A stretch of DNA of 64,000 bases from Fictibacillus nanhaiensis. GTDB taxonomy: Bacteria; Bacillota; Bacilli; Bacillales; Fictibacillaceae. The notes beneath the pieces were generated by a model, which was given only the letters and a program-made list of their open reading frames with translations, did no database searches and was not told the DNA's origin. Both the position numbers and the translations under genes were made by a program. The stretch lies in the NCBI GenBank assembly GCA_016401345.1, contig JAEACG010000001.1, positions 1,054,001-1,118,000 of the forward strand, in the 5' to 3' direction. The stretch's first letter is position 1, and each line of letters begins with the position of its first letter. This document shows positions 377-61,181 of this stretch, piece by piece.

Positions 377-497
377 CCTAAAGGGGAGTAGCTTTTACAA
401 TATAGTCGTCATTTCGGAGCTTCGTGCTCTCGGCTATATTGGCAACTTCATTGTTGTTAGCAAGACCTTTACCGTTCGGTTGGTAAGGGTCTTTTTA
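377..497 (+). promoter_or_regulatory. yybP-ykoY (manganese) riboswitch with terminator
   Basis: The leader of the TerC gene carries the conserved yybP-ykoY elements in order: AAAGGGGAGTAGC (381-392), an internal stem with GTCGTC and CGG, and GCAAGACCTTTACC closing near 473. P1 can form between TAAAGG (379-384) and CCTTTA (466-471). That same 3' strand is the left arm of a terminator hairpin (462-473 with 482-493) followed by TTTTT. Metal binding would stabilise P1 and prevent termination, giving Mn-induced expression. This is the known logic of the family; the fold was drawn by eye. Confidence 0.9.
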
Positions 498-503
498 TTT
501 GTT

Positions 504-538
504 AGACCTTTACCTGCTATTGGTAGAGGTCTTTTTTA
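504..538 (+). terminator. Second, near-duplicate terminator after the riboswitch
   Basis: AGACCTTTACC (504-514) pairs with GGTAGAGGTCT (522-532), followed by TTTTTT. The left arm is identical to that of the riboswitch terminator about 40 nt upstream, so it too could pair with the 5' strand of P1. It lies between the riboswitch and the TerC ribosome binding site. Confidence 0.75.
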
Positions 539-615
539 TTTGTTATCAGGAGGTCGCTTCATGTAAATCGTTCTCGTTTCATTCATGCATCTATCATTTT
601 AAAGGAGGAACCAAA

Positions 616-9522: not shown

Positions 9523-9569
9523 ATGTACCTCCATTATCATTCATGTAGAAATGTAGATTTTTGTCGAAA

Positions 9570-9691
9570 AGCCTATAAGTTATTTATTAGGGCCTATAAA
9601 CAATTTTGAAGGCCCATAAATCGATTTGAAGGACTATAAATTTTCTTGAAGGACTATAAATCAAAGACTACGGCCTATAAAGCAAAATTGA
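9570..9691. repeat. Six-copy intergenic array, core GGCCTATAAA, period 20-21 nt
   Basis: Cores begin at 9570 (variant), 9591, 9611, 9631, 9651 and 9672. The core is GGMCYATAAA, followed by about 10 variable A/T-rich bases that often end TTGAA. It fills the gap between the Ntn-hydrolase gene stop and the 65-residue membrane gene start. See the similar arrays at 32816 and 61046. Confidence 0.85.
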
Positions 9692-27096: not shown

Positions 27097-27585
27097 CTAT
27101 ACTAATCGTGATTCTTTAACCTTTTTCTCATGATGTAATAGCCATTCCTTTCTCCATAAGCCTCCCGCATAACCTGTTAGGCTCCCGCTTGAACCTATTA
27201 TTCGATGACAAGGAACCACAATACTTAACTTGTTCTTGCCATTGGCATTCCCTACCGCCCGAACCGCTTTTTCTTTTTGAAGCGTGATGGCAATATCTCG
27301 ATAAGAGGCGGTTTCTGCGAACGGAATACCGATTAGTGAATTCCAGACTGTTTGTTGAAAAGGAGTACCGCTATATTGGAATGGAAACGTAAAAGTTTGC
27401 CTTACACCTTGAAAGTATTCTATAAGTTGATTTCTGCAGTCGAGTAGAACTGCAGGAATCTCCTCTTGGTTCTCAAGCGCCTTCTCTTTTTCTAAGAAAA
27501 GAATGGACTGAACGACGTCTTCGGTTCCTAAAATCTCGATAACGCCTAAAGGAGAATCTAACTCTACTTTATAGTGCTTACTCAT
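27097..27585 (-). CDS. ogt: Methylated-DNA-[protein]-cysteine S-methyltransferase
   Basis: The 162-residue protein has the helix-turn-helix TPFQQTVWNSLIGIPFAETASYRDIA, then VGNANGKNKLSIVVPCHRIIGSSGSLTGYAGG. The PCHR Cys is the methyl acceptor and the following loop binds DNA. It directly repairs O6-methylguanine by suicidal methyl transfer. ATG 27585 is chosen because GGAGG lies about 7 nt upstream; it overlaps the alkA stop by 8 nt. It is the third gene of an adaptive-response operon and corresponds to AdaB/Ogt of Bacillus. Confidence 0.92.
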   Translation of the reverse strand: MSKHYKVELDSPLGVIEILGTEDVVQSILFLEKEKALENQEEIPAVLLDCRNQLIEYFQGVRQTFTFPFQYSGTPFQQTVWNSLIGIPFAETASYRDIAITLQKEKAVRAVGNANGKNKLSIVVPCHRIIGSSGSLTGYAGGLWRKEWLLHHEKKVKESRLV

Positions 27586-28474
27586 ATAACGACCTCCATA
27601 AATAAAAAGTGGCGTATGCTTCCCATCCACTCCAATTTTCCGCTTGTTTCTTTAATTCATTCATTGTTGGCTTTTGCTGCCATTCTAACTGTTTCATCAC
27701 GGCATTCTGCAGCCCTACGTCAGCGACTGGAAAAGCATCGGGCTTTAGTAAGCATTTCATCAACACATAATCTGCTGTCCAAGGTCCGATCCCTCTGAGG
27801 GAGATAAGTTGTTTAGCAGGATCTTCAGAAGATCTCAGTTTTTCCTTTGACAGACGACCTTCCACTATTTCTTTTGCTATACCAATCACATATTCCGCTT
27901 TTCGCGTTGTAAATTGGAGATTTCTTAAATCATCAATCTGGAGATCTGCGATGATTTCAGGAGATGGATATGCCCAGTATTCATTCTCATGAAGGACTAG
28001 CTTCTTCCCATAGTTCTCAACCAACCTCTTCTTCAAAGTATAGGCAAAAGTTAAATTGATCTGCTGTCCCATGATCGCCCAAGTCAATGCTTCAAAAAGA
28101 TCAGGAATACCAATCATACGTAAACCATAATACCGTTCTACGAGCGGCTGTAATAGGCTATCTTCTGAAACAGCTTCATAAAATGATGAAAGATCCTGAT
28201 TCAGGTCAAACCAATTCCCTATATATTCAACGACCGTATCCATGTTAGGTGGCTCCCTATCTGGGAACTCGATGATGAGGACGTGCACTCTGTAACTGAT
28301 TTTGATCAAGATCAGTTCAGCATTCACAATTATTAACTTATAAATATGTTTATCATGTATGTGGTGAAGAACTTCTAGTGGTGATCTTTCAAGAAAAACA
28401 AGACATTCTCTATAGGAGAATTCCGGTGGCAACTCTATCTCCAATGTTCCATCTAATTCTTCAGTCCATCTCAT
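27578..28474 (-). CDS. alkA: DNA-3-methyladenine glycosylase (AlkA)
   Basis: The 298-residue protein has the AlkA N-terminal beta domain, then a helical core with FEALTWAIMGQQINLTFAYTLKKRLVENYG and the helix-hairpin-helix LISLRGIGPWTADYVLMKCL. PDAFPVADVGLQNAV follows, carrying the catalytic Asp. It excises N-alkylated purines. Its start overlaps the adaA stop by 14 nt and its stop overlaps ogt by 8 nt, so the three products are made together. Confidence 0.92.
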   Translation of the reverse strand: MRWTEELDGTLEIELPPEFSYRECLVFLERSPLEVLHHIHDKHIYKLIIVNAELILIKISYRVHVLIIEFPDREPPNMDTVVEYIGNWFDLNQDLSSFYEAVSEDSLLQPLVERYYGLRMIGIPDLFEALTWAIMGQQINLTFAYTLKKRLVENYGKKLVLHENEYWAYPSPEIIADLQIDDLRNLQFTTRKAEYVIGIAKEIVEGRLSKEKLRSSEDPAKQLISLRGIGPWTADYVLMKCLLKPDAFPVADVGLQNAVMKQLEWQQKPTMNELKKQAENWSGWEAYATFYLWRSLYE

Positions 28475-29045
28475 GATTCGTAACCTTAGCTTCTATGGAC
28501 TTTCGGTAGTCACTTGGTGAGCAATTCTTATACGTGCGGAACGTTTTATAAAAGTTAGAAGGGCTCTGAAACCCTGATTCGTAGCATATCTCCAGGCTGG
28601 TTTTTGAAGTGTTGCTTAACAGATAAGCCGCTTTATCTATTCGAATGTTCTCCACATATTCTCGGGGCGTAACATTCAATTCTTCTTTAAATAATCGTTC
28701 GAGATAAAATGGACTCACTCCAGAATGTTCGGCTACATCTTGTAAAAGAATTCTTTTTTGATGATTGTTTACTAAGAAACTGGTAGCTTTTCTAATCAGA
28801 TTGATTTGTGGACAATGTTCGATCTCTGGCTGACATCTTTTACACGCTCGATAGCCTGCTTCCTCACATTGAGAAATTGAGTCATAAAATACTACGTTTT
28901 GCTTTTTAGGTTTTCGCGAACGACAAGATGGACGGCAATAAATCTTTGTTGTTTTTACTGCTGTATAAAAAAGGCCATCATATGACCTGTTACATTCCAT
29001 AATTTTATCCCACATCTCATCAAACGACATTTGTATCGTACCCAC
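28461..29045 (-). CDS. adaA: Ada-type methylphosphotriester-DNA methyltransferase and AraC activator
   Basis: The protein joins an N-terminal Ada zinc domain (TKIYCRPSCRSR and AGYRACKRCQPE, four Cys, the first the likely methyl acceptor) to a C-terminal AraC helix-turn-helix pair (VAEHSGVSPFYLERLFKEELNVTPREYV and SLEICYESGFQSPSNFYKTFR). There is no methylguanine transferase domain, as in B. subtilis AdaA. Methylation of the Cys turns it into an activator of its own operon. The best ribosome binding site (GGAGGTG) points to GTG 29045 as start (194 residues) rather than TTG 29063. Confidence 0.9.
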   Translation of the reverse strand: MGTIQMSFDEMWDKIMECNRSYDGLFYTAVKTTKIYCRPSCRSRKPKKQNVVFYDSISQCEEAGYRACKRCQPEIEHCPQINLIRKATSFLVNNHQKRILLQDVAEHSGVSPFYLERLFKEELNVTPREYVENIRIDKAAYLLSNTSKTSLEICYESGFQSPSNFYKTFRTYKNCSPSDYRKSIEAKVTNHEMD

Positions 29046-29167
29046 AGACCACACCTCCATCAATCATCTTTTCATTATTTTAACCATTTTAACTGAGCAA
29101 ATCGTCCTCAATCTTGCTGTTATGGTCCTATAATTGAAACGCTAAACCCAGAACCAAAGTATTAAAA

Positions 29168-30613: not shown

Positions 30614-32707
30614 ATGAAACAATTAATCCTTGCTGAAAAGCCTAGTGTGGCACGTGATCTTGCCCGTGTTCTTGGCTGCAAGCAACAGAATAAAAGTTAT
30701 ATTGAAGGACCGAAGCACATCGTTACTTGGGCACTCGGTCATTTAGTTGAGTTAAAGATGCCAGAAGACTATGACAAGCAATACAAACAATGGCGCTTAG
30801 AAGATCTTCCGATTATTCCAAACCATATGGGACTAAAAGTAATCCGACAAGTGAGTCACCAGTTTCGTGCAGTTGAACAACTTTCTAAACGGAAAGACAT
30901 TAGTGAGCTTGTAATCGCAACAGATGCTGGGCGTGAAGGCGAACTTGTGGCTCGCTGGATCATGGAAAAAGTGAGATGGCAAAAATCTGTGAAACGATTA
31001 TGGATTTCATCTCAAACGGATAAAGCGATTCGTGATGGATTTAATCAGCTAAAACCCGCTAAGCAATACGAAAATCTTTACCAATCTGCCGTTTGCCGAT
31101 CTGAGGCAGACTGGCTGATCGGGCTAAACGTAACAAGAGCGTTAACGACGAAGTACAACGATCCGCTTTCTGCAGGTCGAGTGCAGACGCCAACACTTGC
31201 GATGATCCTAGACCGCGAGCAAGAGATCAACGCGTTCCAACCGAAGGATTTTTGGACGATTGATGCGGCGATTGGTATGTTAAAAGCGGCTTGGGAACAT
31301 AACGGTGAGAAGCGTCTTTTTGAAGAGAAAAAAGCGAACGACATAGTAAGCAAAGTAAAGGGACAGCAAGCAACGGTCTCTTCACTTCAAAAGAAAGAAA
31401 AAACAGAGGCGCATCCGATGCCTTATGATCTTACTGAGTTACAGCGTGATGCCAATCGTCGTTTCGGTTTCTCTGCTAAGAAGACCTCTTCTGTACTACA
31501 AAAACTTTATGAGCAATACAAGCTCGTTACGTATCCAAGAACAGATTCCCGCTACTTAACAAAAGATATGGAAAATACGATGTATGATCGTCTTCAAGGG
31601 ATGTCTTCAGGATATCGTGAAGAAGTGCAGCCCTTGCTCAAGCACAAAGGAAACGTAGTAGCTAAGAAAGTATTTAACGATTCAAAAGTAACGGATCACC
31701 ATGCGATTATACCGACAGATGAACCATTGCACTTAGGTGATCTCGATAACGATGAGCGTAAATTATATGACTTGATCGCACGCCGCTTCTTGGCTCTTTT
31801 CTATCCGGCTTATCGATCTGAAACGTTGACCGCTACATTAAACGTTGCGGGTGAAACATTTATGGCCCGTGAAACGCTAGTGCTTGATCCAGGATTTAAA
31901 GTGCTGTCTGGTAAAGAAGAAGAAAGCCCGCGTGCACTCGCTCATTTAAAAGAAGGGCAATCCCTTTCTGTTAAAGAAGTAAATGCGGAGAAAAAGCTCA
32001 CTGAGCCGCCTTCCCGTTTTACTGAAGCTGACCTTTTATCTCGTATGGAAAAATACAGTCTAGGTACACCTGCAACACGGGCTGATATCATTGAAAGACT
32101 TCTAGGATCTGAAGTGCTTGATCGTAAAAACAATAAGCTGCATCCTACTCCAAAAGGAAAACAGTTGATCGATCTTGTGAATGATGAGCTGAAGTCACCT
32201 GAATTGACTGCTAAATGGGAGCAAGACCTTGAAGCCATTGCCCGTGGAAAAGGAAATCCAAAAGAGTTTTTAGAGAACATCCGTAAACAAACGAAACAGC
32301 TTGTAATGGAAATCAAGACGAGCTCGCAGGAATATCGCGCACATAACCTTACAGGTTCAAAATGTCCTGAATGCGGCAAGTTGTTGAAAGAAGTTAAAGG
32401 GCGGGACGGCAAGGTGCTTGTCTGCTCTGATCGTGAGTGTTCATATCGCCGACGTAAAGACCCTAAACTATCGAACCGACGCTGTCCTCAATGTCACAAA
32501 AAGATGGAACTGCATAACGGAAAGGCTGGGACTTATTTTCAGTGTAAACCATGTAATGTAGTGGAAAAAGCAGAAGACAAGAAAAAGAAGGTTACAAAGC
32601 GAGAAGAACGCCAGCTTCTTAAGAAATATAGTAACAACAAAGAAGATGAAGGCTTTGGAAACAGTCTAGCAGATGCTCTAAAAGCAGCGATGAAAGATAA
32701 AAAATAG
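30614..32707 (+). CDS. topB: DNA topoisomerase III
   Basis: The 697-residue type IA topoisomerase has the TOPRIM acidic cluster LVIATDAGREGELVARW (99-115), the catalytic Tyr307 in TYPRTDSRYL and DHHAIIPTDEP. It ends with C-terminal zinc ribbons CPEC...CSDREC and CPQC...CKPC, then a basic tail. It relaxes and decatenates DNA and works with RecQ-type helicases at replication or recombination intermediates. AAAGGGG precedes the ATG. Monocistronic, closed by a long hairpin at 32711. Confidence 0.95.
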   Translation: MKQLILAEKPSVARDLARVLGCKQQNKSYIEGPKHIVTWALGHLVELKMPEDYDKQYKQWRLEDLPIIPNHMGLKVIRQVSHQFRAVEQLSKRKDISELVIATDAGREGELVARWIMEKVRWQKSVKRLWISSQTDKAIRDGFNQLKPAKQYENLYQSAVCRSEADWLIGLNVTRALTTKYNDPLSAGRVQTPTLAMILDREQEINAFQPKDFWTIDAAIGMLKAAWEHNGEKRLFEEKKANDIVSKVKGQQATVSSLQKKEKTEAHPMPYDLTELQRDANRRFGFSAKKTSSVLQKLYEQYKLVTYPRTDSRYLTKDMENTMYDRLQGMSSGYREEVQPLLKHKGNVVAKKVFNDSKVTDHHAIIPTDEPLHLGDLDNDERKLYDLIARRFLALFYPAYRSETLTATLNVAGETFMARETLVLDPGFKVLSGKEEESPRALAHLKEGQSLSVKEVNAEKKLTEPPSRFTEADLLSRMEKYSLGTPATRADIIERLLGSEVLDRKNNKLHPTPKGKQLIDLVNDELKSPELTAKWEQDLEAIARGKGNPKEFLENIRKQTKQLVMEIKTSSQEYRAHNLTGSKCPECGKLLKEVKGRDGKVLVCSDRECSYRRRKDPKLSNRRCPQCHKKMELHNGKAGTYFQCKPCNVVEKAEDKKKKVTKREERQLLKKYSNNKEDEGFGNSLADALKAAMKDKK

Positions 32708-32710
32708 ACG

Positions 32711-32778
32711 AAAAGCTAACTTCCGAGAACCAAAACTAGCATAATATTGCTGTTTTGACTCGTGAAGTTAGCTTTCTT
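32711..32778 (+). terminator. Long hairpin terminator after topB
   Basis: AAAGCTAACTTC and GAAGTTAGCTTT form a perfect 12-bp outer stem. CGAG/CTCG, AAAAC/GTTTT and AGCA/TGCT extend it inward to a TAATAT loop, and CTTTAAA follows. Confidence 0.7.
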
Positions 32779-32815
32779 TAAATAGAGTAAATTGGACTTG
32801 TACGCTTTAAACGTT

Positions 32816-32941
32816 AATCTGTCCGATTGCATAACGAATCTGTCTGATTAGAGTGTTAATCTGTCCAATTGAACGAGTAATCTGTCCAATTCGAGCATTT
32901 ATCTGTCCGATTGAACAGTTAATCTGTCCAATCTCAAAGTA
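32816..32941. repeat. Six-copy intergenic array, core AATCTGTCCRATT, exact 21-nt period
   Basis: Cores begin at 32816, 32837, 32858, 32879, 32900 and 32921, every 21 nt exactly. The 13-nt core is followed by 8 variable bases. An inverted half-core, AATTGGAC, lies just before the array at 32790. The array fills the space between the convergent topB and phoD genes. Confidence 0.9.
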
Positions 32942-33004: not shown

Positions 33005-34753
33005 TTATTGCCCAGCTTCTACACCGATTTTCTTCATCTGCTTCTCATGTGCTTTACCATGAGCTCTGTTTCGATCTTCCTCTACCTCACGAGATACCTT
33101 AACTCCTTCTGCAACCTTCGTTGCTCCGACCTGTTGCAGACCGTTCTGATCTTTTTGATAGACAAAGGAAGCACGCGTTGAGATAGCAGCACCTGGTGAA
33201 GTGACAAACGGAACGACTTTATAATCTGTTCGCCATTCTTCTGGTGTAACCGTACATCGTACATACCCACGGTAATCATTGAAGAATTTAATATGTGGAT
33301 TCAACCCTAGTATTTTATCAGTATCAGAACGTTTATCAGCACCATTTCCACCAGAGGTGATGGATGTACCTACAAATTCAGCTCCAATCACATTAGATGA
33401 TGAATCATTGTAATCCACTTTCAGGTCACACGCCCAGCTTGCATGTACATCGCCTGTCAGTACAATAATATTATTTAAATTCTTTGATTGTATAAAATTT
33501 GTGATACGTTCACGGGATGCCGTATACCCGTCCCATGCATCCATACTCAGCCTAGGCGCCTCAGCTGTCCCATAGTTTCTTTGTGCAAAGAATACTTGCT
33601 GAGCTAGAACATTCCAATGCGCTTTAGAGTTCCCTAAGTTTTGAAGCAACCATCGTTCCTGTTCTATTCCTGTTAACGTCCTATTCGGATCTTGAGATTC
33701 AGGAGTAGGCGGTTTACTTCCGTCTCCATTTGCTTGATCATCACGATATTGTCGTGTATCCATAACGTTGAACATTGCCAAGTTTCCATAAGTGAAGTCT
33801 CGATAGAGTAGCATGTCAGCTCCGTGTGGTAAAGAAGATCGACGAAGTGGCATGTGCTCGTAATACGCTTGATAACCCGCAGCACGTCGTTTGACAAACG
33901 CTTCAACAGACTGTCCTTTTTCGGGAATCATGTTTGCATAGTTGTTCTCTACTTCATGATCATCCCATGTTACGACCCAAGGGAATGCTGCATGAGCTGC
34001 CTTCAAATTACCATCTGAACGATACTGTGCATGTCTGTTTCGATAGTCTTCGAGTGTCATGATCTCAGGACCGCTATGTGTTCGAACATTGCCAGACGGT
34101 GATACATATTCATTCGGTCCGTACTCGTATATGTAGTCACCTAAGTGAACAACAAAATCTAATTCTTCTTCTGACATATGCTGATAGGCTGTAAAGAAAC
34201 CATGTTCATATTGCTGACAAGATGCAAATGCAAAAGTCATACTTTTAACATTCGCACCTTTTCTAGGAAGTGTCTTCGTTCTTCCTACAGGGCTATACTC
34301 ATATCCACTTTTGAATCGGTAGTAGTATACGTGGTTTGGCTTAAGTCCATCTACTTCAACGTGGACAGAGTGTGCGAGATTAGGACGCGCTAGCTCCGTT
34401 CCCTTTTGCACAACCTTTTTAAATCGTTCATCTTCTGCGATCTCCCATTTTACAGGTACAGCTTGATTTGGCATTCCTCCTCCATTCAATGGATCTGGTG
34501 CTAATCTTGTCCATAAAACAACGCCGTCTGCTAACGGGTCACCTGAAGCTACACCTAGCGTAAACGGATAATTTCTAAATTTTGGTGCCGCATTCACTTC
34601 GTAGCTGCCTAGCGACTGAGCAATTGTGAGTCCCAGTGAAATTCCTGCAATTTTTCCGGCACCCGAGAGAAAAGTTCTGCGATTCAGTTTGTTTTTATTA
34701 AAGCTGTCTTCCGTAAGCTTCTTAATCCATTCATCCATCGGTCTTTCATCCAT
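33005..34753 (-). CDS. phoD: Tat-exported alkaline phosphatase/phosphodiesterase PhoD
   Basis: The 582-residue protein has a twin-arginine signal (NRRTFLSGAGKIAGISLGL, RR at 25-26) and the PhoD core: PFTLGVASGDPLADGVVLWTRLAP, FAFASCQQYEHGFFTAY, DFVVHLGDYIYEYGPN, WVVTWDDHEVENNYAN and NIIVLTGDVHASWA, which supply the Fe/Ca ligands. Folded in the cytoplasm and exported by TatAdCd in Bacillus, it releases phosphate from phosphodiesters such as teichoic acid. AAAGGGG precedes the ATG. A TATAAT and a TTAACA lie upstream on the minus strand, compatible with, but not proof of, PhoP control. Confidence 0.93.
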   Translation of the reverse strand: MDERPMDEWIKKLTEDSFNKNKLNRRTFLSGAGKIAGISLGLTIAQSLGSYEVNAAPKFRNYPFTLGVASGDPLADGVVLWTRLAPDPLNGGGMPNQAVPVKWEIAEDERFKKVVQKGTELARPNLAHSVHVEVDGLKPNHVYYYRFKSGYEYSPVGRTKTLPRKGANVKSMTFAFASCQQYEHGFFTAYQHMSEEELDFVVHLGDYIYEYGPNEYVSPSGNVRTHSGPEIMTLEDYRNRHAQYRSDGNLKAAHAAFPWVVTWDDHEVENNYANMIPEKGQSVEAFVKRRAAGYQAYYEHMPLRRSSLPHGADMLLYRDFTYGNLAMFNVMDTRQYRDDQANGDGSKPPTPESQDPNRTLTGIEQERWLLQNLGNSKAHWNVLAQQVFFAQRNYGTAEAPRLSMDAWDGYTASRERITNFIQSKNLNNIIVLTGDVHASWACDLKVDYNDSSSNVIGAEFVGTSITSGGNGADKRSDTDKILGLNPHIKFFNDYRGYVRCTVTPEEWRTDYKVVPFVTSPGAAISTRASFVYQKDQNGLQQVGATKVAEGVKVSREVEEDRNRAHGKAHEKQMKKIGVEAGQ

Positions 34754-42379: not shown

Positions 42380-44302
42380 TTAAAGTTCTAAGATAGAATC
42401 TTCATTATCTTGTCCTTCATACATTGCATCTAGCATTAAACCTGTCCAAAGATTTAGATTCAACCCACGGTCTTCATCATCGCCTTCAAGTCCAAGTTCA
42501 AGACCAGCGTCTAATGAAGAGTATAGAGAAGAACGATCTTCATCTTCATCAAGTGAGCTCATTAAGTCTGCCATGATTGAAGTATTTAACTTAAGAGAAG
42601 TATTTTCAAGCTCATCTTCAGAAGATAAAGAAAGTGCTGTATCCGTGTTAAGCATTGAGCTTAAAGAAGAACGATCTTCTTCGTCTTCAGACATAATAGC
42701 CGCCATCACGTCTGTGCCTAGATCTACTTTTGCACTTGACGCTTCGTCTTCTTCAGTTGCTTCTACTCCTGCCCATAGACCAGCATCAGCCATTACAGAA
42801 GAGTTCTCTTCTTCATCTTCAGAAGTTACGTTTGCCATCACATCTGTGCCTAGATCTACTTTCGTACTTGACTCTTCGTCTTCTTCAGTTGCTTCTACTC
42901 CTGCCCATAGACCAGCATCAGCCATCAAAGAAGAGTTATTCTCTTCATCTTCAGAAGTAACGTTCGCCATTACATCTGTGCCTAGATCTACTTTCGAACT
43001 TGACTTCTCGTCTTCTTCAGTTGCTTCTACTCCTGCCCATAGACCAGCATCAGCCATCAAAGAAGAGTTATTCTCTTCGTCTTCAGAAGTTTCGTTTGCC
43101 ATCACATCTGTGCCTAGATCTACTTTCGCACTTGACTTCTCGTCTTCTTCAGTTGCTTCTACTCCTGCCCATAGACCAGCATCAGCCATCAAAGAAGAGT
43201 TATTCTCTTCGTCTTCAGAAGTTACGTTCGCCATTACATCTGTGCCTAGATCTACTTTTGCACTTGACTTCTCGTCTTCTTCCGTTGCTTCTACTCCTGC
43301 CCATAGACCAGTGTCAGCCATTAGAGAAGAGTTATCCTCTTCATCTTCAGAAGATACGTTTGCCATCACATCTGTACCTAGATTTACATTCGCACTTGAC
43401 TTCTCGTCTTCCTCCGTTGCTTCAACTCCTGCCCATAGACCAGCATCAGCCATTACAGAAGAGTTATTCTCTTCATCTTCAGAAGTAACGTTCGCCATCA
43501 CATCTGTGCCTAGATCTACTTTCGCACTTGACGCTTCGTCTTCCTCAGATGCTTCTACTCCTGCCCATAGACCAGCATCAGCCATCAAAGAAGAGTTATT
43601 CTCTTCATCTTCAGAAGTTACGTTCGCCATTACATCTGTGCCTAGATCTACTTTCGCACTTGACGCTTCGTCTTCCTCCGTTGCTTCTACTCCTGCAGTT
43701 ACACCTGCATTCACAGCAGCTTCTGTATTTGATTCTTCCTCATCTTGAGTTTCAACAGCTGCATGAACATCTGCTCCCGCATTTAGAGAACTAGAATCTT
43801 TGTTATCTTCTTCATTAGAACGTACTTCCGCTTCAACGTTTGTATCTGCGTTTACAGACGCTTTACTTTCATCATCAGAAGAACTTTTAACTGTGGCATC
43901 AGTTCCGACTGCCGCATTAGCTTTAGCACCGTCGTTATGATCTTCAGTTTTTGATTCCGCTTCAACTCCAGCATTTACAGTTGTACCTACTTGAGCTTTT
44001 TCATCTTCTTCACCGGAAGCTTCAGCATTCACATTTGCACCAACGTTTGTTTTTACGCTATTGTGGTTCGAATCATCATCTGAGCTCTCTAATTCGATGC
44101 CTGTTACGGCACCTAGATCAAGGTTAAGATTAGACTCTTCATCTTTCTCAGAAAGCTGAATGTTACTGATCAACCCTGTTCCGATTTTAAGACTTGATGA
44201 CCCTTCATCTGCAAATGTTTCACTTCCTCCAAAAAATAACCCAGCCGCAGCAGCACCTGTAATCGCAAATGTTCTAATAAAGTTTGATCTTTTCATTGTC
44301 AT
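42380..44302 (-). CDS. Secreted acidic tandem-repeat protein, unknown function
   Basis: The 640-residue protein has a signal peptide (KRSNFIRTFAITGAAAAGLFFGG, cut near TFA) followed by tandem repeats to the end. The unit is about 22 residues: a hydrophobic-alternating half (for example VDLGTDVMANV) and an acidic turn (SEDEENNSS). Pairs form near-identical 44-residue (132-bp) blocks in the centre. Such a pattern predicts a beta-solenoid-like surface protein with stacked acidic loops, possibly binding cations. No known family is recognised. It is 45 nt downstream of another secreted protein gene on the same strand, so they may be co-expressed. The start is ATG 44302 or 44296. Confidence 0.8.
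   Translation of the reverse strand: MTMKRSNFIRTFAITGAAAAGLFFGGSETFADEGSSSLKIGTGLISNIQLSEKDEESNLNLDLGAVTGIELESSDDDSNHNSVKTNVGANVNAEASGEEDEKAQVGTTVNAGVEAESKTEDHNDGAKANAAVGTDATVKSSSDDESKASVNADTNVEAEVRSNEEDNKDSSSLNAGADVHAAVETQDEEESNTEAAVNAGVTAGVEATEEDEASSAKVDLGTDVMANVTSEDEENNSSLMADAGLWAGVEASEEDEASSAKVDLGTDVMANVTSEDEENNSSVMADAGLWAGVEATEEDEKSSANVNLGTDVMANVSSEDEEDNSSLMADTGLWAGVEATEEDEKSSAKVDLGTDVMANVTSEDEENNSSLMADAGLWAGVEATEEDEKSSAKVDLGTDVMANETSEDEENNSSLMADAGLWAGVEATEEDEKSSSKVDLGTDVMANVTSEDEENNSSLMADAGLWAGVEATEEDEESSTKVDLGTDVMANVTSEDEEENSSVMADAGLWAGVEATEEDEASSAKVDLGTDVMAAIMSEDEEDRSSLSSMLNTDTALSLSSEDELENTSLKLNTSIMADLMSSLDEDEDRSSLYSSLDAGLELGLEGDDEDRGLNLNLWTGLMLDAMYEGQDNEDSILEL
42676..43725 (-). repeat. 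132-bp tandem repeats inside the acidic protein gene
   Basis: TGTGCCTAGATCTAC recurs every 132 nt (for example at 42713 and 42845), and the block is repeated about eight times with few differences, so recent expansion by unequal recombination or gene conversion is likely. The opposite strand is also open (Ser-rich) only because of the repeat composition. Confidence 0.9.
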
Positions 44303-55836: not shown

Positions 55837-56580
55837 TTAGTCTTTTCCATTATCTTTCATTCCTGGTGATGGGCTGTTTTTCCCAGGTTGAACACTTGGA
55901 CCTTGTTTTGAATCTTTTTGTTGCATATCTTGTTTAGGTGCTTGTGGTGCTTGTGGAGTCTCACCTTTTTGTTCTTCCATCTGCTTAGGAGCTTCCTGCT
56001 CTTGTCCTTCTTCTTGCTGTTGCTGTTGCTGTTGCTGACCTTCACCTTGTTCAATTTGGCCTGCTCCGCCACCTTGGTCTGCTCCGCCACCTTGACCTGC
56101 TCCGCCACCTTGGCCTGCTCCGCCGCCTTGGCCTGCTCCGCCGCCTTGACCTGCTCCGCCGCCTTGACCTGCTCCGCCACCTTGACCTGCTCCGCCACCT
56201 TGACCTGCTCCGCCGCCTTGACCTGCTCCGCCGCCTTGGCCTGCTCCGCCGCCTTGGCGAACTTTAGGTAATTTTAACGAAGAGTAAGCGTACAGAATGG
56301 ATTGATACGTACGAGCGTCAACAGATCCTGTTACAGGTAGTCCGTGACTTTTTTGAAAATACTTTACACCCTTAACCGTTGATGCGTTATAGTAACCATT
56401 TATTTTTCCAGAGTAACTGCCTAGGGATTTAAGCATGGATTGAATTGCGTAAACATCTGGACCCTTCGCATTCTTCCCAACTGCAGAAGCTGCATTTGAA
56501 GTACCTAAAAGTAGTGCTAATGCCAATACAAAAGCACTCACATATTTTGAAATATTCTTTGCATTTTTTTGCCAATACAT
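55837..56580 (-). CDS. Secreted peptidoglycan-binding protein with GGGAGQ repeats
   Basis: The 247-residue protein has a signal peptide (YVSAFVLALALLLGTSNAASA) and a PG_binding_1 domain (about 36-97) with GPDVYAIQSMLKSLGSYSGKINGYYNASTVKGVKYFQKSHGLPVTGSVDARTYQSIL. Eleven GGGAGQ hexapeptides (one GGGADQ), a poly-Gln stretch and a Pro/Gln/Lys-rich tail follow. It should attach to the wall and extend a flexible Gly/Gln-rich chain, a good transglutaminase substrate in principle. AAGGAGATG precedes the ATG. The neighbouring VanW gene supports a wall role. Confidence 0.8.
   Translation of the reverse strand: MYWQKNAKNISKYVSAFVLALALLLGTSNAASAVGKNAKGPDVYAIQSMLKSLGSYSGKINGYYNASTVKGVKYFQKSHGLPVTGSVDARTYQSILYAYSSLKLPKVRQGGGAGQGGGAGQGGGAGQGGGAGQGGGAGQGGGAGQGGGAGQGGGAGQGGGAGQGGGADQGGGAGQIEQGEGQQQQQQQQEEGQEQEAPKQMEEQKGETPQAPQAPKQDMQQKDSKQGPSVQPGKNSPSPGMKDNGKD
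56056..56253 (-). repeat. Eleven 18-bp tandem repeats (GGGAGQ coding)
   Basis: Eleven in-frame units of the 18-bp type TTGRCCTGCTCCGCCRCC (plus strand) run without gaps. Being a multiple of three, changes in copy number alter protein length but not frame. Confidence 0.92.
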
Positions 56581-61045: not shown

Positions 61046-61121
61046 TAATTAAGTCGGAATCAGGAGTAATTAAGTCTAATTTGCTAGTAATTAAGTCTAA
61101 ATCAAAATAATTAAGTCTAAA
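61046..61121. repeat. Four-copy intergenic array, core TAATTAAGTC, period 20-21 nt
   Basis: Cores begin at 61046, 61067, 61088 and 61108. The 10-nt core is followed by TAA-type bases and a variable part. A short inverted partial core (TAGACTT) follows directly after the array at about 61131-61138. It lies between the DUF3817 gene and the egt operon. Confidence 0.85.
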
Positions 61122-61181
61122 TTGAAAAATATAGACTTTTCGACAAATCCTGATATATCTCTTCTATCTTTTTTACCTAAC

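What the first reader, a model, noticed from the sequence alone, without database searches (positions are those of the whole stretch)
32816..32941. Intergenic array 2: AATCTGTCCRATT core with exact 21-nt period
Six cores are spaced exactly 21 nt apart for 126 nt while the 8-nt tails vary. Keeping the phase with divergent tails suggests selection for spacing (same DNA face or RNA register). An inverted half-core lies beside the array. It sits between convergent topB and phoD genes, where both transcripts may run into it.
Basis: seen in the sequence. Interest (0 to 1): 0.75.

Follow-up and report, generated by a model that had tools for sequence, protein, structure and literature searches.

The report
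Helix-phased repeat arrays between genes
Between two genes of this soil bacterium lies a row of six short repeats spaced exactly two DNA turns apart, one of perhaps a hundred such rows scattered through the genomes of its genus, each apparently a docking strip for a DNA-binding protein and built much like one end of a Tn7-type jumping gene.

Summary
The array is real: six AATCTGTCCRATT-type cores at exactly 21 nt (32816-32933), between convergent topB and phoD, just after a strong topB hairpin. It is not local. The genus (Fictibacillus, by TopB identity) carries many intergenic arrays of 20-21-nt period with many different cores. In a de novo census (window plus 400 kb from each of three congeners) 35 of 44 intergenic arrays have lag 20-22 or 41-43, against 3 of 20 at loci of other genera; this scales to roughly 80-150 per genome. 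16 of 35 carry TGTCGA at one end in one polarity, 0 in the other. They avoid divergent promoters and favour convergent 3' ends. Between species whole 21-nt units come and go, cores hold (3% mismatch against 22% in tails), and one site can carry another core. TGTCC arrays at 21 nt recur in three other families. The layout (TGT terminus, tandem sites two helical turns apart) resembles single ends of Tn7-type transposons. I read them as DNA-level protein-binding arrays, probably bound by a transposase-like protein; binder and function are unproven. This array itself lacks TGTCGA, a second end and a nearby transposase.

The parts
32816..32828 (+). core 1, AATCTGTCCGATT
   Evidence: exact match
32837..32849 (+). 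core 2, AATCTGTCTGATT
   Evidence: 1 mismatch, +21; TGTCGGATT in G008 and G015
32858..32870 (+). core 3, AATCTGTCCAATT
   Evidence: exact match, +21
32879..32891 (+). core 4, AATCTGTCCAATT
   Evidence: exact match, +21
32900..32912 (+). core 5, TATCTGTCCGATT
   Evidence: 1 mismatch, +21
32921..32933 (+). core 6, AATCTGTCCAATC
   Evidence: 1 mismatch, +21
32712..32775 (+). hairpin just after topB and before the array, probably its terminator
   Evidence: 12-nt perfect inverted arms; -32.2 kcal/mol, z -9.4 for 32708-32785; stem changes on both sides between congeners
30614..32707 (+). topB (DNA topoisomerase III-like), convergent neighbour
   Evidence: Topoisom_bac 2.1e-130
33005..34753 (-). phoD-like phosphatase, convergent neighbour
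   Evidence: PhoD 2.1e-123
9562..9683 (+). second array of the same class in the window, other core (about GGCCTATAAAT), steps 21, 20, 20, 20, 21, led by TGTCGA at 9562-9567
   Evidence: lag 20, 45/63, anchor in right polarity
61046..61145 (-). third array of the same class in the window, core about TTAGACTTAATTA on the minus strand, TGTCGA end at 61145-61140
   Evidence: lag 21, 39/63, anchor in right polarity

Best explanation
The array is one of roughly 80-150 intergenic arrays per Fictibacillus genome that work at the DNA level as tandem protein-binding sites. Each 21-bp unit holds one site (a 9-13-nt core flanked by A/T tracts). The two-turn step puts all sites on the same face, so some 4-6 copies of a protein can bind side by side, while the 8-nt tails are only spacers. 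Nearly half of the arrays begin with TGTCGA, after which the sites follow: the plan of one end of a Tn7/Mu-family transposon. The binder is therefore most likely a TnsB/MuA-like transposase or a domesticated relative, and the arrays are solo or miniature ends kept in the space behind terminators. SHOWN: phase, copy number, number of arrays in the samples, many cores, TGTCGA polarity, placement at 3' ends, core conservation, change of the core at a fixed site. INFERRED: protein binding, identity of the binder, origin from transposon ends. Not shown: any effect on the cell.
For: Census: 35 of 44 intergenic arrays in 188,255 intergenic bases of Fictibacillus have lag 20-22 or 41-43 (32 of 41 without the window), against 3 of 20 in 165,972 bases of other genera (Fisher p 1.4e-6). 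Anchor: 16 of 35 with TGTCGA in one polarity, 0 in the opposite, 0.9 expected by chance. Placement: 15 of 35 convergent and 1 of 35 divergent, against 84 and 113 of 523 background regions. Open spacing: 111 of 112 steps are 21 or 42 in 44 loci; in the open-gap genome search all triplets listed for G000, G008, G094, G187 and G355 have steps of 21 or 42, while G154 also has 19 and 40 and G050 had no match (its reversed control gave one hit, in G008). Orthologous units, G000 against G008: TGTCCNNTT 3.2%, tails 22% mismatch in 45 unit pairs from 12 loci; unit positions 2-4, not used for detection, 0 mismatches. A+T at the second harmonic (10.5 bp): mean share 0.24 against 0.10 by chance, p below 0.05 in 10 of 26 (24 arrays and 2 pooled types). 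Same site, other core: L019/L234 and L210/L238, topB site, syntenic sites s1 and s2. Yardstick: the TnsABCD element beside glmS in G015 has four sites at exactly 20 nt behind TGTTGAATG, a PF09299-bearing element in G013 three at 20 nt; ShCAST TnsB sites are 22 bp and overlap by 1 bp, behind an 8-bp terminal sequence (PMC9371665, passages).
Against: The topB array has no TGTCGA, and 19 of 35 census arrays have none. No second inverted end, no cargo between ends and no clean target duplication was seen; the best empty site (G008, s1) lacks 134 bp and looks like a deletion with 2-bp microhomology, not an excision. PF09299 found no TnsB in the window's own genome and one in only 4 of 18 congeners. 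The real ends have 20-nt steps, not 21. Compound arrays (L016, L017, L020) have their TGTCG ends facing each other, the wrong way round for one transposon. Taken whole, arrays diverge as much as flanks (9.7% against 10.8% in 11 pairs), tails even faster than flanks, and the alignments show 11 indels inside arrays that are not multiples of 21, against 6 that are and 33 in flanks; I take most of the 11 as alignment artefacts but did not resolve each. Whole-unit gain and loss also fits plain slippage. No binding protein was identified.
Confidence: 0.5

Rival explanations
1. Dead transposon ends: the arrays are relics of Tn7/Mu-type elements or MITE-like copies with no present role; similar cores mark descent, not function.
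For: TGTCGA polarity 16:0; some arrays of different loci share tails over about 120 nt at 86-92%; vertical inheritance with losses; arrays as a whole diverge like flanks.
Against: Cores stay constant while tails drift; phase is kept; the same site carries another core in other species; no second ends seen and no PF09299 protein in the own genome.
Confidence: 0.25
2. Ordinary tandem repeats kept in step by slippage and unequal exchange; the 21-nt period is inherited, not selected.
For: Unit gains and losses are mostly whole 21-nt units; the topB array has 4 to 8 copies in nine genomes and an internal 42-nt duplication in G002 and G003.
Against: Many different cores share the period; three other families show 21 nt with TGTCC cores; slippage does not explain TGTCGA at one end or the near absence from divergent regions. 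On the other hand at least 3 of the 35 census arrays (L322, L345, L346) look, by eye, like simple tandem or A+T-rich repeats.
Confidence: 0.15
3. Sites of a host nucleoid, insulator or gyrase-like protein at gene 3' ends, like BIMEs in E. coli (recalled), unrelated to transposons.
For: Enriched between convergent genes, nearly absent from divergent regions; most TGTCC arrays are 84-126 bp long.
Against: Many different cores in one genome would need many binding specificities; TGTCGA end in 16 of 35.
Confidence: 0.12
4. RNA element in 3' UTRs (structure, decoy or small RNA).
For: Minus strand of the array folds somewhat better than shuffles, z -2.3.
Against: Either orientation to the neighbouring gene; plus strand z -0.6; only a chance-level Rfam match (mir-759, 20.7 bits against a cut-off of 100, E 0.66, and in the topB hairpin); the array lies behind the topB hairpin.
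Confidence: 0.05

Closest known systems
Ends of Tn7-like transposons and V-K CAST (tandem TnsB sites)
   Same: terminal TGT, then several transposase sites stepped by about two helical turns; compared with a TnsABCD element of congener G015, a PF09299-bearing element of G013 and ShCAST in PMC9371665 (passages)
   Different: only one end seen, no cargo, no transposase nearby, 21 instead of 20 nt, many cores per genome, old vertically inherited sites
STAR elements of staphylococci
   Same: interspersed intergenic direct repeats with variable spacers that expand and contract, locus-specific and stable within lineages (abstract and outline of PMC3532100)
   Different: here a fixed 21-nt step, many core families side by side, a TGTCGA end in nearly half, and sites shared between species with another core; the STAR core itself was not compared
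TAACTGA intergenic direct repeats of Beggiatoaceae
   Different: heptamers mostly just upstream of start codons; here 21-nt units mostly at gene 3' ends
BIME/REP elements (recalled)
   Same: many copies, 3' ends and convergent regions
   Different: not palindromic hairpins, but direct repeats in helical phase

Membership tests
Tn7/Mu-type transposon end | tandem transposase sites about two helical turns apart | tested here: met
   spacing only: 21-nt steps; yardstick 20 nt in G015 and G013; that the sites bind a transposase was not tested
Tn7/Mu-type transposon end | fixed terminal 5'-TGT sequence | tested here: not met
   no TGTCGA at the topB array; TGTCGA in 16 of 35 arrays of the class
Tn7/Mu-type transposon end | second end in inverted orientation with cargo between | tested here: not met
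   none seen at the topB, s1 and s2 sites in the stretches read; compound arrays face the wrong way
Tn7/Mu-type transposon end | target-site duplication at an insertion | tested here: inconclusive
   only deletion-like empty sites found
Tn7/Mu-type transposon end | cognate transposase in the genome | tested here: inconclusive
   PF09299: 0 in the own genome, 4 of 18 congeners; the 14 control genomes also gave 0
Interspersed intergenic direct repeats (STAR-like class) | intergenic direct repeats with variable spacers at many loci | tested here: met
   census
Interspersed intergenic direct repeats (STAR-like class) | the STAR core consensus | not tested
   no STAR sequence was compared
Neutral tandem repeat | phase and all parts of the unit drift alike | tested here: not met
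   core 3.2%, tail 22% mismatch; 111 of 112 steps 21 or 42; but see the unresolved indels
CRISPR array | near-identical repeats with unique spacers of roughly 30 nt (recalled) | tested here: not met
   13-nt cores, 8-nt tails; cas genes were not searched

The most novel reading that the evidence does not exclude
A genus-wide system of docking arrays at fixed 3'-end sites, in which the site and the two-turn geometry are conserved while the recognised core is exchanged between lineages. It would be bound by a diversifying family of domesticated transposase-like proteins, for instance as chromosomal immunity or decoy sites against Tn7-like elements, or as insulators between convergent genes.
Probability: 0.18. 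Interest if true: 0.85.

Novelty: new variant of a known kind. Interest (0 to 1): 0.6.

Why it matters
If the arrays are bound, a whole genus carries of the order of a hundred multi-site docking strips per genome with several recognition codes, an unusual case in which geometry and place are kept and sequence is exchanged. That gives a direct way to ask how transposon ends turn into host elements, whether solo ends give target immunity, and what keeps order between convergent genes.

Tried and rejected
Coding: the 21-nt unit can be read as heptads (SDRL.., TVHF..), but the frame has a stop inside the first unit of the topB array and changes between arrays (read by eye), so I rejected it. RNA. 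Plasmid or phage iterons: no similar DNA for the topB array in the plasmid or phage collections nor for an ACTCGTGGATT array in the plasmids (phages not tried); 54 viral stretches with the TGTCC triple and 1 with the ACTCG pair. I printed the viral arrays of 4 or more units and by eye saw none like the genus's arrays, but did not identify the contigs. Spo0A box (TGTCGAA, recalled): rejected because the base after TGTCGA is A in only about half of the cases seen (by eye). Replication polarity: type B arrays in G015 follow the replichore in 8 of 9, type A in 7 of 13, read by eye; dropped. 'TGTCG cap unit at the start of the array': holds in several Fictibacillus arrays, but the variant sits further in in others; dropped.

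Faulty or weak steps: one search used a wrong gap length (8 instead of 9) and its hits are meaningless. The reversed-pattern control rang in 15 of 60 genomes, 12 of them Fictibacillus, so it is not a clean control; this fits another 21-nt core (ACTCGC) but those hits were not read out. Reversed controls also gave one hit in G004 and three in other genomes, one in G008 and three in 397 genomes. admits only steps of 20, 21, 22 and 42, and one search is biased at the TGTC positions by its detection rule; one search left out two of 14 locus pairs (other core in G008), three. The other-genera loci all surround topB, whereas the congener samples are spread over the chromosome; a few of them are MAGs of distant phyla. 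The window was chosen because of this finding and holds 3 of the 35 arrays.

Full report
OBSERVATION. The window has six cores at 32816, 32837, 32858, 32879, 32900 and 32921, each exactly 21 nt from the last. Three match AATCTGTCCRATT fully and three with one change; tails of 8 nt differ. The array lies between topB (ends 32707) and phoD (minus strand, ends 33005). The inverted half-core AATTGGAC (32790-32797) is there but not conserved. Directly after topB lies a hairpin, 32712-32775 (z -9.4), whose stem changes on both sides between congeners; it probably ends the topB transcript before the array, although the simple terminator scan did not list it.

NOT LOCAL. In the own genome the same core occurs in 21-nt phase at seven further loci that I read. 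TopB is 92-98% identical to ten named Fictibacillus records and 81% to F. aquaticus, so the genus is Fictibacillus by inference; the species is not known. Of 18 genomes of the genus, own included, 11 have seven or more matches to a two-unit 21-nt pattern and seven have 0 to 2. A second type, TTACTGTCCACTT, is at least as common in G000 and G008, also at 21 nt. Some loci are compound: type A on one strand, a gap of 71-93 nt in the three read, then type B on the other strand.

PERIOD. With spacing left open, 111 of 112 steps of up to 60 nt between successive TGTCCNNTT motifs in 44 fetched loci of five genomes are 21 (91) or 42 (20); one is 35 (loci chosen for having arrays). In the open-gap search of seven genomes all triplets listed for G000, G008, G094, G187 and G355 have steps of 21 or 42; G154 also has 19 and 40; G050 had none (read from the listing). 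Of 397 genomes of the order 13 hold the exact TGTCC triple: eight Fictibacillus and five in three other families. The ACTCG-type pair is in 12 of 397: 11 Fictibacillus and one genome of another family (reversed control three hits). TGTCC arrays have mostly 4 to 6 units, with a minimum of 3 required.

CENSUS. I sampled 20 stretches of 20 kb from each of G015, G007 and G005 and scanned intergenic DNA for self-match at lags from 10 to 45. With the window this gave 44 arrays in 188,255 intergenic bases (523 regions); 35 have lag 20-22 or 41-43 (window 3, G015 14, G007 8, G005 10). Shuffled sequence gave 0 to 1.7 arrays of any lag per set. The same scan of 43 TopB loci outside Fictibacillus (165,972 bases, 400 regions) gave 20 arrays, 3 with these lags; two of the three look like one small repetitive gene (not tested). 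Scaled to the genome this suggests about 150 (G015), 80 (G007) and 100 (G005), with the caveat that at least three of the 35 look like plain tandem or A+T-rich repeats. Cores are many: ACTCGTGGATT, ACTCGCCGGATT, TTATCCGTGAAAT, TTAGACTTAATT, TTTTATGTGAT, CGCTCAAA, GGCCTATAAAT and others.

ANCHOR AND PLACE. TGTCGA lies at one end of 16 of the 35, each time with TGT outward and never the other way round; about 0.9 would be expected. The topB array does not have it. 15 of 35 arrays lie between convergent genes, 19 between tandem and 1 between divergent genes; background 84, 326 and 113 of 523 (p 1.6e-4 for convergent, 2.1e-3 for divergent).

EVOLUTION. In orthologous arrays of G000 and G008 cores differ in 3.2% of positions and tails in 22% (45 unit pairs from 12 loci). 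Arrays as a whole differ in 9.7% and flanks in 10.8% (11 loci), so tails change faster than flanks, which I cannot explain. One search also counted 6 indels of multiples of 21 and 11 others inside arrays, and 33 in flanks; most of the 11 are probably alignment artefacts, since one search shows intact steps, but I did not resolve each. 18 of 108 units had no partner. At the topB site nine genomes have 4 to 8 type A units, G001 a worn remnant, G005, G006, G012 and G014 a CGCTCA array, G017 a CCGTAAAT-like array; in G007, G009 and G010 none shows in the 520 nt printed. At L019/L234 and L210/L238 one species has type A and the other type B in the same intergenic space. At two other syntenic sites clades carry different cores, and some species have none. 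The closest empty site (G008, s1) lacks 134 bp and looks like a deletion.

MECHANISM. Orientation to genes is free, RNA folding is weak, and among the first five harmonics A+T content is strongest at 10.5 bp (mean share 0.24; p below 0.05 in 10 of 26). This fits DNA-level binding with all sites on one face. The nearest architecture is a transposon end. The TnsABCD element beside glmS in G015 has an end that reads TGTTGAATG and then four sites at exactly 20 nt; G013 has three at 20 nt. In ShCAST the 22-bp TnsB sites overlap by 1 bp behind an 8-bp terminal sequence (PMC9371665, passages seen). But one end alone, no cargo, no clean duplication and no PF09299 protein in the own genome mean that it cannot be filed as a transposon. 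I give 0.5 to DNA-binding arrays with a transposase-like binder, 0.25 to dead ends, 0.15 to plain tandem repeats.

LITERATURE. Six full-text searches of the held PMC library for such arrays, plus one each for TnsB sites and STAR elements, listed no paper that I recognise from title or start of abstract as describing them; most papers of subscription journals are not held. STAR elements (PMC3532100, abstract and outline) and TAACTGA repeats (PMC4679880, abstract and outline) are the nearest printed kinds seen.

Noticed in passing
   Followed up: no
window 42701-43696: 132-bp tandem repeat, 7.5 copies at 92% matches, inside the 640-aa reading frame 42380-44302.
   Followed up: no
window 56056-56256: 18-bp tandem repeat, 11 copies, inside the 247-aa frame 55837-56580.
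   Followed up: no
window 463-545: Two head-to-tail copies of a 41-bp unit that looks like a hairpin terminator (AGACCTTTACC..GGTAAAGGTCTTTTTT).
   Followed up: no
L300/L301 (G015), L302 (G013): Tn7-like elements downstream of glmS; TnsA, TnsB, TnsC and TnsD domains and glmS were checked in G015, in G013 only PF09299; their ends have sites at exactly 20 nt.
   Followed up: partly
L226, L247 (G154): TGTCC arrays of 21-nt steps in higher-order repeats, often about 124 nt apart; elsewhere in this genome also 19-nt steps.
   Followed up: no
L141 (IMG/VR contig): A viral contig stretch with 25 TGTCC-type units in 21-nt phase and matches every 63 nt.
   Followed up: no
window 27097-29063: Cluster of alkylation-repair genes: Ada-like regulator, HhH-GPD glycosylase (AlkA-like), methylguanine methyltransferase.
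   Followed up: no
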